In this document: in pieces, positions 4,430-50,410 of the stretch | How the letters are laid out: each line of letters opens with the position of its first letter | Position numbering within the stretch: the first letter of the stretch is position 1 | Assembly: GCA_937924775.1 (NCBI GenBank) | Contig: CALDUT010000001.1 | Location: 372,001 to 436,000 of the forward strand | Direction: 5' to 3' | DNA length: 64,000 bases | Source of the DNA: an uncultured Gemmata sp. | GTDB lineage: Bacteria > Planctomycetota > Planctomycetia > Gemmatales > Gemmataceae | The notes under the pieces: generated by a model | What the model was told of the DNA's origin: nothing | Seen by the model: the letters and a program-made list of their open reading frames with translations, nothing else | The model's database searches: none | Program-made: the position numbers and the translations under genes

Positions 4430-4620
4430 GAGCAACTATTCCCCTCGCGAAGGCGAGTTCGCGGGGGGAACCCAGCCGCCGAGCGGGCATCCTGGACCCA
4501 GGCCCCACACTCGGCGGATACCCCGGTCGGTCGTTCCCGACCATGATTCGATCCCAACCGGCGGCATCCCCAATGCCGCCGGGCTTGGAAACGAACCTCA
4601 AAGCGAGGAGAGGTGAAAGG

Positions 4621-6354
4621 ATGCACCGCCACCATACAACCCTGCGGCGGATGCCGTGGGTGATGACTCTGACCGTCGGCCTCGTGGTGACCCTGACCGG
4701 GCACGCCCAGCCGCCGGACCCGAAAATGCCGCCGTCGGTTCAGGTCGATCCCAAAACCGGCGCACTGATTGTACCGTTGGGTGGATTGGCCAGTTTCGAC
4801 CCCAAACTCACCGAGCCGCCCAGCGATATTCTGGTCAGTCGCGAAGACATTCTCGGAGTGCGATTGGATCCGAACGATCCCAAAAAATTGCTTCTGACCG
4901 GGAAAGTTGCGGGTTTGAGTCAACTGACCATCGTTCAGAAAGAAAAGCCGTCATTGAAATACGATGTCGTCGTTCAGCCGGACTTGGCCCTGCTTCGCAA
5001 CGTCATCAAGCGAACGGTGCCGACCTCGAACGTCGATGTTCAACCCGGTGTGGGGAATGTGATCGTTCTGAGTGGCTATGTGACCTCGCCGCAAGATGCC
5101 GACACCATCACGCGACTGGCGACAAGCGCTGTGGGCGGAAACCCGAACAACCTGGTCAACGCGATTCAGGTCGGCGGTGTGCAACAGGTGCAGATTGACG
5201 TGGTCATTGCGTCGGTGGATCGCAACCTGCTGCGGGCCCGGGGTTTCGACTTCGCCCTGCCCGGAGCCGGCAATGGAACTTCATTCAACAGCCTCATCAG
5301 CGGTCTGTTAGGCACGCAGCAAATGGGCGGTGCAGCGGGTGGTGGAGGCGTGGGCGGAGCCGCGGCCGGGCCGATGTTCAACCCCAACGCCAACCTGCAA
5401 TTGGCCATTATTCCGGACAAGTTCTTCGGTGCCTTGCAGGCTCTCCGCAGCGAAGGGGTGGCCAAATTCCTCGCTGAACCGAAGGTAGTGACCCAAACGG
5501 GCCGCCCGGCCTTCTTCCGAGCCGGTGGCCAACAGGCCATCCTCAGCCAAACGGCGGGCATCACTGGTCCGGGTGTGACCTTGGTTCCCTTCGGGACGCA
5601 ATTGGAAGTGGTGCCGATTGTCTATGGCAACAACATGATCTGGCTGGACATTCGCCCGAGTGTGACCGCGGTCAATCAAGGTTTGGGGATCAACGTCGGC
5701 GGTGCGCTGAGCCCCGGCTTCTCCGAGCAAAGCGTGCAATCGACGGTGTTGTTGGAATCCGGCCAAACCTTTGCCATCGGGGGGTTGATTCAAACGAGTG
5801 TGCAGGCTTCGGCGAGCAAAGTGCCGTTCCTCGGGGATTTGCCCTACATCGGCCCGGCCCTCAGCTCGGTGAGCTATGAAACGCGAGAAAGCGAATTGGT
5901 GATCCTGGTGACTCCACGCTTGGTCCACCCGATGGACCAGTGTCAAACGCCGAAGCGATTGCCAGGCCAAGAAACCCGCACCCCCGATGATTATGAACTA
6001 TTCTTGGAAAACATACTGGAAGCACCGCGGGGGCAACGGAAGGTGTGGAACGGGAAGTGTTACAACGCCGCCTACAAGTGTGACCCAACGTTGAGCAAGT
6101 ACCCGTGTGCCGGCAACGTTTGCACCGGTCCCAACGGCACCTGCTTGCCAATGCCAGTTCCCGGTCCCTTGCATGCAGCCACCGGTGGCTACGCCCCGAC
6201 CACCCCGGCCCCGATTCCCGTATCGCCGGTCAACGGAGCCAGTGGCGTCCCCGCGCCGATGCCGGAACCGACGACTCTCCCGGCCATCCCTGGCACACCG
6301 GTGGGCGAGGATTCCGGCTCATCCGTGCCTACCCTTCCACCGGTGGGAGGGTGA
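4621..6354 (+). CDS. cpaC: Tad secretin (CpaC/RcpA; type II/III secretion secretin family)
   Basis: An outer-membrane secretin forming the exit channel of the Tad pilus. Seen: a signal peptide (WVMTLTVGLVVTLTGHAQ), an N-terminal pilus-assembly domain (~40-110), a BON-like segment (~125-185), and the C-terminal secretin domain with the signature VPFLGDLPYIG from residue 401. After the barrel comes a Cys-containing segment and a Pro-rich tail to residue 577. The ATG at 4621 follows a strong GAGGAGAGGTG. A TTG-initiated extension to 4426 is open but lacks a signal peptide and overlaps cpaB, so it was not used. Confidence 0.92.
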   Translation: MHRHHTTLRRMPWVMTLTVGLVVTLTGHAQPPDPKMPPSVQVDPKTGALIVPLGGLASFDPKLTEPPSDILVSREDILGVRLDPNDPKKLLLTGKVAGLSQLTIVQKEKPSLKYDVVVQPDLALLRNVIKRTVPTSNVDVQPGVGNVIVLSGYVTSPQDADTITRLATSAVGGNPNNLVNAIQVGGVQQVQIDVVIASVDRNLLRARGFDFALPGAGNGTSFNSLISGLLGTQQMGGAAGGGGVGGAAAGPMFNPNANLQLAIIPDKFFGALQALRSEGVAKFLAEPKVVTQTGRPAFFRAGGQQAILSQTAGITGPGVTLVPFGTQLEVVPIVYGNNMIWLDIRPSVTAVNQGLGINVGGALSPGFSEQSVQSTVLLESGQTFAIGGLIQTSVQASASKVPFLGDLPYIGPALSSVSYETRESELVILVTPRLVHPMDQCQTPKRLPGQETRTPDDYELFLENILEAPRGQRKVWNGKCYNAAYKCDPTLSKYPCAGNVCTGPNGTCLPMPVPGPLHAATGGYAPTTPAPIPVSPVNGASGVPAPMPEPTTLPAIPGTPVGEDSGSSVPTLPPVGG

Positions 6355-22335: not shown

Positions 22336-22591
22336 AGGTTTTGCGGCAATCAGAAGTCGTCGGAACCCACGAGTTGTGTGCCAACGGGGGACAACGGACA
22401 ACTGTTCAATTTTCAAACAGCCAACCGGTTTCTGGAGCAGCCCAGAGGCATTCCTTGAAAAGAAAGTCCGAAGAACAACTTTCCACAGGTTTCTTTGTTC
22501 AATCGGCAGGTGGCAACCCTTGACGGGTACGCGACGGCGGACTAGCGTGAGACGGGTTGAGTTTTATGAAGTTTTTCAGCGGCGGAACACA

Positions 22592-23890
22592 ATGCCCGGG
22601 ACATGCGTAGTTGGGTTGCAATGGGGCGACGAGGCGAAAGGCAAGATCGTCGATCTGTTGGGCCACGATTGTGATATTGTGGTGCGATACAACGGCGGAG
22701 CCAACGCGGGCCATACGGTGGTGGTCAATGGCAAAGCCTTCAAGCTCTCCTTATTACCCACCGGGGTGATTCGCCCGGGTGTCATTTCGGTGATTGGCAA
22801 TGGGGTGGTGGTGTATCCGCCGCGATTTCTGGAAGAGGTCGATTCGCTGGCTCAAGGCGGCATCGACGTGACCGGGAACCTGTTTGTGAGCGATCATGCC
22901 CACATCATCTTCCCCTACCATATAGAAGAAGAACGGCTGTTGGAAAGCGGCAGTGAGGGGAAGATCGGAACCACTGGTCGCGGCATTGGGCCGTGCTACC
23001 AAGATAAAGTCGGGCGGCGGTTCGGTATTCGCATGGGCGAGTTGCTGAACGAAGCACACCTGCGGGAGCGGTTGCGGTTTATTGTGCCCTTCAAAAATCG
23101 GTTGCTGACCGCGTTCGCCAATGGTCATGGGCCTTCCGTGCGTTCGTTCGACTCCGAGACCATCGCCGAGGAATACCTAGGTTATGCCCAACGGCTCAAG
23201 CCGTTTGTTCGCGATACCAGCCGCCTGTTGCAAGACGCGCTGGCAGCTGGCAAGCGACTGATCTTTGAAGCCGCTCAAGGGAGTCTGCTGGATGTCGATC
23301 ACGGGACATACCCGTATGTGACGAGTTCGAGTAGTTTGCCATCGGGCATCTGGGGCGGTGCCGGCGTTCCTGCGAAGTTCATCACGCGGATCATCGGTGT
23401 GGTGAAAGCTTACACCACCCGGGTGGGTCAAGGGCCTTTCCCCACCGAACTGACCGACGGCCCCGACGGTATCGGCGAACGCATCCGCCGCGTGGGCCGG
23501 GAATATGGTACGGTAACCGGCCGCCCCCGCCGGGTGGGCTGGTTCGATGCGGTCGCGGTCCGCTATACGGCCACGCTTTCCGGGGCCGATGAAATCACGC
23601 TGATGCTGCTCGACGTCCTCAGCGGCCTGACCGAGTTGAAAATTTGCACCGCGTATGAACTCGATGGCCAGCAGCTCACGCACTTTCCCAGCGATGCGTA
23701 TCAACTCGAACGATGCCAGCCCATCTACGAGACACTCCCGGGGTGGCGTGAAGACATCACCGGGATCCGGAAATGGGCCGATTTGCCCACCGCCGCCCGC
23801 CGCTATGTGGAACGTATCCGCGAATTGGTGGGGCTGAAGGTGAGCGTGGTGTCGGTGGGGCCGGATCGGGAACAAACGATTATGGTCTGA
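22592..23890 (+). CDS. purA: Adenylosuccinate synthetase
   Basis: Converts IMP, aspartate and GTP to adenylosuccinate, the first committed step to AMP. Seen: VVGLQWGDEAKGKIVD at the N-terminus (P-loop-like GDEAKGK), NGGANAGHTV near 38-47, GTTGRGIGP (~127-135) and GRPRRVGWFD (~303-312). 432 residues is standard. ATG 22592 gives the family N-terminus; the frame is open 216 nt further upstream without homology. A TTGACG-17-TAGCGT pair at 22520-22548 is a weak promoter candidate. purC lies at 55.4 kb, so the purine genes are scattered. Confidence 0.97.
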   Translation: MPGTCVVGLQWGDEAKGKIVDLLGHDCDIVVRYNGGANAGHTVVVNGKAFKLSLLPTGVIRPGVISVIGNGVVVYPPRFLEEVDSLAQGGIDVTGNLFVSDHAHIIFPYHIEEERLLESGSEGKIGTTGRGIGPCYQDKVGRRFGIRMGELLNEAHLRERLRFIVPFKNRLLTAFANGHGPSVRSFDSETIAEEYLGYAQRLKPFVRDTSRLLQDALAAGKRLIFEAAQGSLLDVDHGTYPYVTSSSSLPSGIWGGAGVPAKFITRIIGVVKAYTTRVGQGPFPTELTDGPDGIGERIRRVGREYGTVTGRPRRVGWFDAVAVRYTATLSGADEITLMLLDVLSGLTELKICTAYELDGQQLTHFPSDAYQLERCQPIYETLPGWREDITGIRKWADLPTAARRYVERIRELVGLKVSVVSVGPDREQTIMV

Positions 23891-46689: not shown

Positions 46690-48231
46690 ATGGCGGATGT
46701 CATCACCCCCCGCGCCACCAATTATTCCCAATGGTATCTCGATGTCGTCAAACAAGCGGGCTTAGCCGATAACTCGGATGTACGCGGATGCATGGTCATC
46801 AAACCCACTGGCTATGCCCTCTGGGAGAAGATGCAACGCGGACTCGATCGGCTTTTCAAGGATACTGGGCACGTCAACGCCTATTTCCCGCTCTTTATTC
46901 CCCTGAGCTATTTGGCCAAAGAAGAACAAATGGCTGAAGGATTCGCGAAAGAGTGTGCGGTTGTGACACATTACCGCCTCAAGGCCGAGCCCGGCAAACC
47001 CCTCCATGTGGACCCCGAAGCCAAACTCGAAGAACCGCTAATCGTCCGGCCGACGTCGGAGACGATCATTTGGAACACCTACAAGAAATGGATTCAGAGC
47101 TACCGCGACTTGCCCTTGCTCATCAACCAGTGGGCCAACGTGGTCCGTTGGGAGATGCGGACGCGGTTATTTTTGCGCACAGCGGAATTTTTATGGCAGG
47201 AAGGACATACCGCGCACGCCACCGCGAAAGAAGCCGAAGACGAAACCTTGCAGATGGTTCGTGTCTATCAGAAGTTTGCCGAAGAGTTTATGGCCATGCC
47301 GGTGCTGGTGGGGCCGAAAACCGAAGGCCAGAAGTTCCCGGGGGCGGTTTACACCCTGTGCATCGAAGCCATGATGCAAGACGGCAAAGCCTTGCAAGCC
47401 GGGACATCGCACTTCCTCGGCCAGAATTTCGCCAAAGCCTTTGACGTCACCTTCAAAGATCAGAACAACAAAGAAGAATACGCCTGGGCCACCAGTTGGG
47501 GGGTCAGCACCCGGCTGATCGGTGGCTTGATCATGACGCATTCCGACGACAATGGCTTGGTTCTGCCACCACGCTTGGCCCCCACGCATGTGGTGATCGT
47601 GCCTTTGGGGAAAAATGATGCCGAACGGGCACCGTGTATCGCGGCCGCGGAAAAGCTGGCCGCCGAATTGCGAAACCTTCCCCGCGACGAGTTCTTCGGC
47701 TACGAACCGATCGCGGTCAAGATCGACACCATGTTCGATAAACAACCCGGGTTTCGCTATGCCGAATATGAGGTCCGCGGTGTGCCGGTACGCGTTGAGA
47801 TTGGCCCCAAAGACATTGAGAAAGGCGCGTGCGCTGTGGCTCGCCGCGACGTACCTGGCAAGGACGGCAAGCAGTTCGGCATCCCCCTGGCCGGCGCGGC
47901 GGAATACATCCACCAGCTCCTGCGCGACATACAATCGGCCCTCTATCAGCGGGCCCAACAACGTCGCGACACACGCACCGTGACCGCCCACACGCTGGAC
48001 GAATTCAAAGACCTTTTCCCCGATCGCGACGAACACGAAGACCTGCCGGTCGAAGCGCTGAAATTCGTCTACGCCCACTGGGACGGCACACGCGAAACGG
48101 AAGAATGGGTGCAAAAGCACTTCAAAGCCACCATCCGCTGCTTACCGTTTGATGCGCCCCAGGAAGAGGGCCGATGCATTTTCACGGGCCAGCCCTCAAA
48201 ACGGCAGGTCGTCTTCGCCCGGGCCTACTAA
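46690..48231 (+). CDS. proS: Prolyl-tRNA synthetase, short (archaeal/eukaryotic-type) form
   Basis: Charges tRNA-Pro. Seen: the class II motifs [14 protein letters not shown] (~62), RPTSETIIW (~119-127), and [20 protein letters not shown] (~150-170). 513 residues and a C-terminal extension ending in ...RAY with a terminal Tyr, which marks the eukaryote/archaea-like ProRS without the bacterial editing insert. Only two of the Cys expected in the C-terminal zinc domain are visible (RCLPF, GRCIF). Confidence 0.96.
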
Positions 48232-48249
48232 AAAATGGCCCAAAATTAT

Positions 48250-48278
48250 TTGACAACGTCCCCCAGATTGCGCAGAAT
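48250..48278 (+). promoter_or_regulatory. Sigma70-type promoter just after proS
   Basis: Perfect TTGACA (48250-48255), 17-nt spacer, CAGAAT (48273-48278, 4 of 6). Predicted start near 48285, inside a 16-bp palindrome. Confidence 0.55.
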
Positions 48279-48283
48279 AAATG

Positions 48284-48374
48284 GTGAACTCGAGTTCACT
48301 TTTCTGCTTCTTTCTCATACCGAAGTAGAAGTGAACAAAATCTCATTTTCTGCAGACGGCCTCCAGCCGTTTTT
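48284..48374 (+). ncRNA. Candidate ~90-nt small RNA or attenuated leader
   Basis: Begins with the 16-bp perfect palindrome GTGAACTCGAGTTCAC (48284-48299). The middle GTTCAC can pair with GTGAAC upstream (48284-48289) or with GTGAAC downstream (48331-48336), where a longer imperfect stem extends through TCT/AGA and CTTC/GAAG. Ends in ACGGC-ctcca-GCCGT followed by five T (48356-48374), a textbook intrinsic terminator. No RNA family recognised. The terminator could alternatively serve proS. Confidence 0.45.
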
Positions 48375-48724
48375 GCAACCGCCACACTCTGTCAGCAGAC
48401 GGGGTATCTCCACGCCCCATCGCCTCCGGCAGCGACGCCTTACACCATTTTTCGCAACAGCTGCCGGGGAAGACCAGTAGCTTTCTTCCCAACTTTTTCA
48501 GGAGTTTCTCATGAATCGGTACACTGGATCAAAATTATGAGAAAAATCCTCGATGAGCAATTGAGGAATCATGGACTTCTCGTTGGTAACGCGCGACCTG
48601 TCGCGGTGTAGTGACAATACTGGTTCTGGTCATGTCGTCAGAACGGTGATTGTTGATTCCCCCGCTGGGGCTGAGTTATGGCCACAGAGGTCATCGGCGG
48701 TGGGCGGCTGGATACGAGGTCGCG

Positions 48725-50410
48725 ATGGGATTTTCTTATTATCATTTCTCGGCTCATCGGTCCTGGCGCCGAGGGCTCATGAGTCTGGCGCTATTGGGGC
48801 TGGTGTGGGGTTGTTCCCCCGTGGAGAAATCCGATGAAAAGTCGAAGTTTCGTTTGTCGGAGCCGAACGCACAGCAACCGGACGATCAGCCGCTGCCGGT
48901 GCCACCTTCTCGCCCACCGTCGGAACCTCAACCCGGAGGATTGTTGCTGCATGATCCGCGCGCGTTCCCAGGCTATACGCTTATCGCCCCCCTGATGTCT
49001 ACCAAGACTCATCTTATCGACATGAGCGGGCACATAGTTCACAGTTGGACCAGTGATGCTTTGCCCGCCATGAGTGCCCAATTGCTTCCGAACGGGAACC
49101 TGTTGCGGCCGTGCCAGTTACCAGAAACGGAACGGCACTTCACCCACTCCGGGGGCGGCGGCCGCATCCAAGAATTCACCTGGGACGGCGAATTGGTCTG
49201 GGACTTCCGCTTCCACGATGCCCGGCACCTGCCGCATCACGACGCCATCAAACTTCCCAACGGTAACGTGCTGCTAGTCGTCTGCGAGCGAATCCCGGTG
49301 ACAGAAGCGGAAGCCGCAGGCCGCAAACCGCATTCCATCAATGGCGACTACCTGCTGGTGGATTCGCTGGTGGAGATTCGACCAACGGGTCGGACTACCG
49401 GCGAAGTGGTGTGGCGTTGGCGCGTGTGGGATCATCTGGTCCAAGAGTGGGACGACACGAAACCGAACTATGGTTTGGTCGCGGAACACCCCCAACGGAT
49501 TGATTTGAACTACGGTGTGGGAACCAACGGAGTGGTGGTGGCCAAAGGCGTAGATGTGGCCAAGTTGCAAGCCTTGGGTTATCTCGGCTCCTCCAGCCCC
49601 TCGCCAGGTATGCTGGGCAATGCCGACTTCACCCACATCAACTCGGTCGCCTATAATCCCGAATTGGATCAAATTGCCATCACCGGCCTGACGTTCTCAG
49701 AAATCTGGATCATCGATCACTCCACCACGATGAGCGAAGCCGCTGGCCGCACCGGTGGCCGATACGGCCAAGGCGGCGATCTGCTGTACCGCTGGGGTAA
49801 TCCGCGTGCCTATCGCCACGGTACCAATGCTGATCAACAACTCTTTGGCCCCCACGATGTCCAGTGGATCGCCAAAGGATTACCGGGAGAAGGAAACTTG
49901 CTGGTGTTCAACAATGGTGTGGGCCGCCCGCGCGAGATGTACTCGTCCATTGAGGAAATTCGCCCGCCGCGGGATGCCGCCGGCAAGTATCACCGGAAAC
50001 CCAATAGCCCCTTCGGCCCGTCCAAACCCCACTGGAGCTACCACAGCCCCATCAAACCAACGTTCTTTTCGCCCACCTTTTCCGGTGCGCAGCGACTCCC
50101 CAACGGTAACACCCTGGCCTGCGTTGGCATGACGGGAAGTCTCCACGAAGTCACACGCGACGGTGTCGATGTCTGGAAATTCTCCCTCAACCACGGGCAG
50201 AACGAGCTGCCGATGCTACCACTGCCGCCGACTAACACCCCGCCGCCACCTCCCGGCCATCCCGGAGTGCCCGGGCCCCCGATCCCAATAATGGTACCTG
50301 GCGAACCCGTGTTCCGCGCCATCCGCTACGCCCCGGATTACCCCGGTCTGGTCAACAAAGACCTCTCGACCAAAGACGGTTCGATGGCCATGGTCGATGC
50401 CGAGGGATGA
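48725..50410 (+). CDS. Arylsulfotransferase-like lipoprotein
   Basis: 561 residues. Seen: a lipoprotein signal with LVWGC (Cys ~30), then a beta-propeller with DMSGHIVHSWTSDALPAMSA, GELVWDFRFHDARHLPHHDA (~150-170) and FGPHDVQWIAKGLPGEGNLL (~375-395), matching the ASST (arylsulfate sulfotransferase) family, where paired His residues are catalytic. Donor and acceptor are unknown. Pro-rich C-terminal stretch. ATG 48725 follows CGAGGT; the frame opens at 48650. Confidence 0.8.
   Translation: MGFSYYHFSAHRSWRRGLMSLALLGLVWGCSPVEKSDEKSKFRLSEPNAQQPDDQPLPVPPSRPPSEPQPGGLLLHDPRAFPGYTLIAPLMSTKTHLIDMSGHIVHSWTSDALPAMSAQLLPNGNLLRPCQLPETERHFTHSGGGGRIQEFTWDGELVWDFRFHDARHLPHHDAIKLPNGNVLLVVCERIPVTEAEAAGRKPHSINGDYLLVDSLVEIRPTGRTTGEVVWRWRVWDHLVQEWDDTKPNYGLVAEHPQRIDLNYGVGTNGVVVAKGVDVAKLQALGYLGSSSPSPGMLGNADFTHINSVAYNPELDQIAITGLTFSEIWIIDHSTTMSEAAGRTGGRYGQGGDLLYRWGNPRAYRHGTNADQQLFGPHDVQWIAKGLPGEGNLLVFNNGVGRPREMYSSIEEIRPPRDAAGKYHRKPNSPFGPSKPHWSYHSPIKPTFFSPTFSGAQRLPNGNTLACVGMTGSLHEVTRDGVDVWKFSLNHGQNELPMLPLPPTNTPPPPPGHPGVPGPPIPIMVPGEPVFRAIRYAPDYPGLVNKDLSTKDGSMAMVDAEG

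What the first reader, a model, noticed from the sequence alone, without database searches (positions are those of the whole stretch)
48250..48374. Promoter-palindrome-switch-terminator unit: candidate small RNA or attenuator after proS
TTGACA-17-CAGAAT is followed by a 16-bp palindrome at the predicted start site, then a segment (GTTCAC) that can pair either upstream or downstream with GTGAAC, then an intrinsic terminator with five T. All fit in ~125 nt with no protein gene. The palindrome contains GAAC-N4-GTTC, the core of Gram-positive-type LexA boxes, so a DNA operator reading is also possible.
Basis: partly seen in the sequence, partly recalled or inferred. Interest (0 to 1): 0.75.

Follow-up and report, generated by a model that had tools for sequence, protein, structure and literature searches.

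The report
Short terminated RNA unit after proS
Just behind a tRNA-synthetase gene of a Gemmata-like bacterium lies a convincing promoter that should make a folded RNA of about 90 bases and stop; a sister species keeps the layout with different letters, but what the RNA does is unknown.

Summary
The promoter and the terminated unit hold up; the 'switch' and the LexA reading do not. The promoter (TTTGACAA-N10-ATTGCGCAGAAT, 48249-48278) lies 17 bases behind the proS stop. In sister genome G012 it stands at the same place with all 20 specified bases identical, while the DNA around it has diverged. It is one of 26 matches to an extended promoter motif in the two genomes (control 0). Of those 26, only it and its G012 ortholog are followed within 250 bases by a hairpin plus T-run, 91 and 86 bases on. 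Both have, at the same distance, a long hairpin of equal strength but mostly different sequence, with two stem pairs changed on both sides. A ~90-nt non-coding transcript is therefore likely. The 16-bp palindrome is no rarer than chance, is missing in G012, fits Gemmata lexA boxes poorly, and neither of its pairings touches the terminator. Best reading: a small-RNA gene in the proS 3' UTR sharing the proS terminator. Main rival: a prematurely terminated leader of the arylsulfotransferase-like gene downstream. No transcript was seen, and only two species inform the comparison.

The parts
46690..48231 (+). proS (prolyl-tRNA synthetase), gene upstream of the unit
   Evidence: ORF; PF00587, PF09180, PF03129; relatives in 40 of 41 genomes at E<=0.001, some of them only distant class-II synthetase matches
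48249..48278 (+). promoter P1: TTTGACAA-N10-ATTGCGCAGAAT (TTGACA-17-CAGAAT)
   Evidence: 20 of 20 specified bases identical at the orthologous place in G012; 12 matches in G000 and 14 in G012 with up to 3 mismatches, control 0; recurrence in only 3 of 19 genus genomes
48284..48299 (+). 16-bp perfect palindrome at the predicted start site; can form a 6-bp hairpin with loop TCGA
   Evidence: not beyond chance in 64 kb; not in G012
48285..48374 (+). predicted short transcript, about 90 nt (start site inferred, not measured)
   Evidence: distance from P1; fold z -4.07
48294..48336 (+). long leader hairpin, 15 pairs, 11-nt loop
   Evidence: z -4.86, 0 of 500 shuffles; counterpart in G012 starting 15 instead of 16 nt after the -10, -17.5 against -17.8 kcal/mol, pairs 6 and 7 changed on both sides
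48354..48374 (+). intrinsic-terminator-like hairpin (5-7 pairs) with T-run 48370-48374
   Evidence: counterpart in G012 (about 8-bp stem, then T7) is the only stem+T5 site on the + strand of the 7,539 bases held as L031
48506..48656 (+). second conserved non-coding block between the terminator and the ASST-like gene; not part of the unit, probably the gene's own control region
   Evidence: 121 of 151 identical to G012 against 40 of 96 in the unit and 366 of 501 in the gene's first 501 bases; 34-nt core in 3 of 95 family genomes, beside the ASST-like gene in each
48725..50410 (+). arylsulfotransferase-like gene downstream (start codon inferred; mechanical ORF starts at TTG 48650)
   Evidence: PF05935, 1.4e-15; follows proS also in G012 and, 1.4 kb away, in G003

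Best explanation
It is a short, non-coding, self-contained transcription unit nested in the 3' UTR of proS: a sigma-70-type promoter starts RNA at about 48285, the RNA folds into one long hairpin and stops at an intrinsic terminator near 48374, giving an RNA of about 90 nt. The same terminator probably also ends the proS message. I commit to a small-RNA gene of the kind that has its own promoter at the end of an mRNA and shares its terminator. Shown by sequence: promoter conservation and recurrence, hairpin and terminator layout kept in two species. Inferred: that it is transcribed, the start site, the shared terminator, and that the product acts as an RNA.
For: P1 is identical in its 20 specified bases in G012 at the orthologous site. 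Of 26 sites of this promoter motif in two genomes only P1 and its ortholog have a stem+T5 within 250 nt, at 91 and 86 nt. End of -10 to end of T-run is 96 and 93 nt. Hairpins: z -4.86 and -4.57, 0 of 500 shuffles each; -17.8 and -17.5 kcal/mol, five outer pairs the same and two changed on both sides. In L031 the G012 terminator is the only stem+T5 site on the + strand of 7,539 bases, and in the window only 17 nt separate the proS stop from P1, so the proS message has no other such terminator nearby. The ASST-like gene has its own conserved block, and G003 has block and gene without a P1-type match, so P1 is not needed for that gene.
Against: No transcript data. Apart from the promoter and AGTTCA the 90 nt are not conserved (40 of 96), so no pairing seed is kept, which is unusual for a base-pairing small RNA. 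No Rfam family matches, at gathering score or with E<=5 beyond chance snoRNA/miRNA hits. Only two species. The window's terminator is modest (5-7 pairs, T5) and is not listed by the general scan; the G012 terminator region does not fold better than its shuffles (288 of 500 as good).
Confidence: 0.48

Rival explanations
1. Terminated leader: P1 is the promoter of the arylsulfotransferase-like gene, most transcripts stop at 48374 and read-through feeds the gene; the short RNA is a by-product or the regulated step.
For: P1 is the only sigma-70-like hit on the + strand between the proS stop and 48725 in the scan. Order promoter-hairpin-terminator-gene is kept in both species. Structure kept while sequence turned over fits a cis role.
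Against: P1 lies 447 bases (window) and 344 bases (G012) before the gene's inferred start, with a terminator between. No alternative pairing overlaps the terminator stem. Leader-block pairing is not better than shuffled leaders (177 of 300 and 216 of 300 as good). G003 has gene and block but no P1-type match.
Confidence: 0.3
2. Ordinary gene end: the hairpins and T-run are just the proS terminator, and P1 is a promoter with no product of consequence (or one that reads through weakly).
For: The region starts 17 nt after the proS stop; the palindrome too is terminator-like. Stem+T5 sites occur by chance about once per strand and window (mean 1.27). The RNA sequence is not conserved.
Against: P1 is under strong constraint (20 of 20, with flanks diverged) and the long hairpin, which a terminator does not need, is kept in both species.
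Confidence: 0.15
3. The palindrome is a LexA (SOS) operator at the P1 start site.
For: LexA is encoded. The lexA promoter of G000 carries GTGAACAGTTGTTAAT, which shares 10 of the 12 outer bases with GTGAAC-N4-GTTCAC (count by eye).
Against: Score 6.0 bits against 13.2-25.0 for box 1, -0.2 for box 2, 3.8 for both; ranks 73, 696 and 143 of 127,974. Inner bases T..A differ from the purine..pyrimidine seen in the lexA boxes listed. Not in G012.
Confidence: 0.04
4. The palindrome is the operator of another, unknown repressor.
For: It sits on the start site; TGAACNNNNGTTCA occurs at only 2 places in G000 and 5 in G012, so it is rare.
Against: Absent from the orthologous G012 promoter; the other G000 site lies inside a 531-aa ORF.
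Confidence: 0.03

Closest known systems
3' UTR small RNAs with their own promoter (DapZ of Salmonella dapB, MicX of Vibrio; reviewed in PMC9438474, passages seen)
   Same: Promoter at the end of the upstream coding gene, short RNA ending at what should be the mRNA's intrinsic terminator, no protein.
   Different: P1 lies 17 nt after, not before or within, the stop codon region; no evidence of expression, chaperone or target; the RNA letters are not conserved between two close species.
Transcription attenuators / terminated mRNA leaders (general knowledge, recalled)
   Same: Promoter, leader hairpins and an intrinsic terminator upstream of a gene on the same strand.
   Different: No antiterminator that excludes the terminator stem was found; a further 150-base conserved block stands between terminator and gene.
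Gram-positive-type LexA boxes (consensus recalled) and the Gemmata lexA boxes found here
   Same: GAAC-N4-GTTC core.
   Different: Inner bases and total score do not fit; not conserved at the ortholog.

Membership tests
Own-promoter 3' UTR small RNA | promoter of its own at the 3' end of a coding gene | tested here: met
   P1 17 nt after the proS stop, conserved and recurrent; by sequence only
Own-promoter 3' UTR small RNA | intrinsic terminator shared with the upstream mRNA | tested here: inconclusive
   hairpin plus T-run in both species and no other stem+T5 site nearby; termination not measured
Own-promoter 3' UTR small RNA | conserved pairing stretch / base-pairing targets | tested here: not met
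   40 of 96 aligned bases identical to G012, no better than the neighbouring 53 of 131; targets not searched genome-wide
Own-promoter 3' UTR small RNA | stable transcript in the cell | not testable with these tools
   no RNA data
Transcription attenuator | terminator between promoter and regulated gene | tested here: met
Transcription attenuator | alternative structure that excludes the terminator stem | tested here: not met
   both pairings of 48294-48299 end before 48337; terminator hairpin 48354-48372 formed in the full-length fold
LexA operator | match to the LexA box of the host group | tested here: not met
   6.0 bits against 13.2-25.0, rank 73 of 127,974; boxes are inferred, LexA binding not shown
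LexA operator | LexA binding / induction by DNA damage | not testable with these tools
   needs bench work
Any Rfam family | covariance-model match at gathering score | tested here: not met
   0 matches in the 64-kb window; only a chance hit at E 3.8 in 48200-48760

The most novel reading that the evidence does not exclude
A class of short RNA units in this planctomycete lineage whose layout and fold are under selection while the letters turn over freely: the act of starting and stopping (or the bare hairpin) at the end of proS is what matters, for instance to gate entry of RNA polymerase into the next gene, driven by a lineage-specific extended promoter (TTTGACAA-N10-ATTGCGCA) that is rare in the rest of the genus.
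Probability: 0.15. Interest if true: 0.6.

Novelty: new member of a known kind. Interest (0 to 1): 0.33.

Why it matters
Three literature searches of the held library gave listings without a paper on small RNAs or start-site maps of Gemmata, so a unit with a conserved promoter and fold would be a concrete starting point. The extended promoter motif and the lexA boxes found on the way are useful, testable handles for the group. In itself the finding is a modest, ordinary-looking small-RNA or leader candidate.

Tried and rejected
LexA operator: tested by footprinting lexA promoters of 19 genus genomes, one best locus each; an exact GAAC-N4-GTT was found in 6 of 19, a box-1 match to a seed taken from G000's own lexA in 14 of 19, which were used for the matrix; L201, L202, L204, L215 and L217 were dropped for want of a box. 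recA promoters of both genomes show no GAAC-N4-GTTC in the stretch scanned. Rejected as the likely reading.

Switch: folding of full and truncated leaders and the sister sequence give no coupling to the terminator. Pairing of the leader with the downstream block: not above shuffles. Repeat or mobile element: the region matches nothing else in G000 or G012 beyond short promoter-like pieces. Covariation by tool: MAFFT could not align the two hairpins in register, so pair changes were read from the two separate folds; RNA-model building was not tried with two sequences.

The promoter motif at looser stringency gave 45 and 46 matches but control hits 4 and 2, so only the stricter set of 26 was used; for the base-frequency table 7 of the 26 (L132, L133, L137, L140, L143, L147, L148) were left out as lying in genes or doubtful. 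Downstream genes of these promoters were looked at by eye in 20 loci and not run against a family library. No structure prediction was run.

Full report
Setting. The window lies in a 4.79-Mb Gemmata-like genome, G000. The nearest relative among those searched is G012, proS 97% identical; its contig has the same length and the same sequence behind proS as JANWYJ010000015.1, 'Gemmata sp. isolate SKYG68' (L031). The unit lies between proS (46690-48231) and an arylsulfotransferase-like gene (PF05935, 48725-50410), all on the + strand.

Observation. Taken singly most are not remarkable: one 16-bp palindrome against 1.55 expected; three stem+T5 sites on the + strand against 1.27; five promoter-like sites in 6 kb against 2.3, with the terminator not listed by that scan. 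The fold of the 90 nt is better than all 200 shuffles and the long hairpin better than all 500.

Promoter. There TTTGACAA and ATTGCGCAGAAT are unchanged, 10 bases apart. The pattern with up to 3 mismatches has 12 matches in G000 and 14 in G012 and none read backwards. A shorter form with up to 1 mismatch is in 3 of 19 genus genomes: 8, 10 and 1 matches, control 0. At looser stringency control hits appear. Many of the 26 stand a short way before an ORF on the same strand, some do not. So this is a genuine, lineage-weighted extended promoter motif, most simply the housekeeping type; that it is read by the housekeeping sigma factor is inferred.

Unit. Among the 26 matches only the window site and its G012 ortholog have a hairpin plus at least five T within 250 nt, the T-run starting 91 and 86 nt after the -10. 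From the -10 to the end of the T-run it is 96 and 93 nt. In G012 that site is the only stem+T5 site on the + strand of the 7,539 bases of L031, with seven T; stem+T7 sites came up 2 times in 15 simulated 64-kb sequences. Yet the G012 terminator stretch does not fold better than its shuffles, being very G+C-rich. The long hairpins begin 16 and 15 nt after the -10; five outer pairs are the same, the next two are C-G/T-A in one and G-C/A-T in the other, and the inner parts are unrelated. Energies are -17.8 and -17.5 kcal/mol, z -4.86 and -4.57.

Switch. The GTGAAC at the start site is not matched by any inverted repeat in the first 40 nt of the G012 RNA. In the window the 5' hairpin (-6.4 kcal/mol) forms first and is replaced by the long one (-17.8) once the RNA reaches 48337. 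Neither form touches the terminator, so as a switch it would control nothing visible.

LexA. G000 has one LexA match. Its promoter region carries GTGAACAGTTGTTAAT, and the same box, with a second one 30-34 bases on, can be found in 14 of 19 genus genomes. The palindrome scores poorly on matrices of these boxes, with 72 or more window positions scoring as well or better. That LexA of Planctomycetes does not use the E. coli box is stated in PMC3108266 (passages); a passage of PMC8565304 shows how varied LexA motifs are and does not mention Planctomycetes. The boxes are inferred and binding is not shown.

Downstream block. Between the terminator and the gene, 48506-48656 is 121 of 151 identical to G012, more than the first 501 bases of the gene (366 of 501), while the unit (40 of 96) and 48375-48505 (53 of 131) look unrelated. 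Its 34-nt core is in 3 of 95 family genomes, G000, G012 and G003, and in G003 it also precedes the gene, which there follows proS at a distance. G003 has no P1-type match. As RNA the stretch 48490-48720 folds no better than shuffles (67 of 200 as good), so a DNA-level control region is the simpler reading. This separates the unit from the gene and tilts me to a stand-alone short RNA, but not by much.

Explanation and odds. Small-RNA gene in the proS 3' UTR, 0.48; terminated leader of the next gene, 0.30; ordinary gene end with an idle promoter, 0.15; LexA operator, 0.04; other operator, 0.03. [quoted passage not shown] The resemblance is in layout; the defining RNA-level features could not be tested, and a conserved pairing stretch was tested and not met, so I say it works like one and do not file it as a proven member.

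Noticed in passing
48506-48656; G012 and G003 upstream of the same gene (L230, L229): Conserved non-coding block before the arylsulfotransferase-like gene, 121 of 151 identical to G012, 34-nt core in 3 of 95 family genomes; includes an inverted repeat TTTCTCAT...ATGAGAAA shared by G000 and G012. Function unknown.
   Followed up: partly
48249-48278 and L127-L149 (positions 1501-1530 or reverse): Extended promoter motif TTTGACAA-N10-ATTGCGCA[C/G]AAT, frequent in G000 and G012 and nearly absent from 17 other genus genomes; the ATTGCGCA part overlaps a near-palindrome with the -10.
   Followed up: partly
L197, L198, L203, L205-L214, L216 (upstream of lexA): Two boxes, GTGAACAGTTGTTA-like and GTGGACGGGTGTAG-like, 30-34 bases apart in 14 of 19 Gemmata lexA promoters: candidate LexA boxes of the genus.
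   Followed up: partly
L131 (G000) and L124 (G012): A promoter of the same motif, kept in both species, points toward the end of a gene on the other strand (release-factor-like by eye, no family search), so it may drive an antisense or orphan RNA.
   Followed up: no
16133 and 22396, - strand; 2699, - strand: Window positions that score well on the lexA-box matrices (14.3-17.0 bits on the combined one); 22396 lies close to the start of the ORF 22376-23890.
   Followed up: no
L031 about 4530-4655: In G012 pieces like TACTGAAAAATGGCCAT recur between the proS stop and the promoter, as if the gene end had been duplicated (by eye).
   Followed up: no
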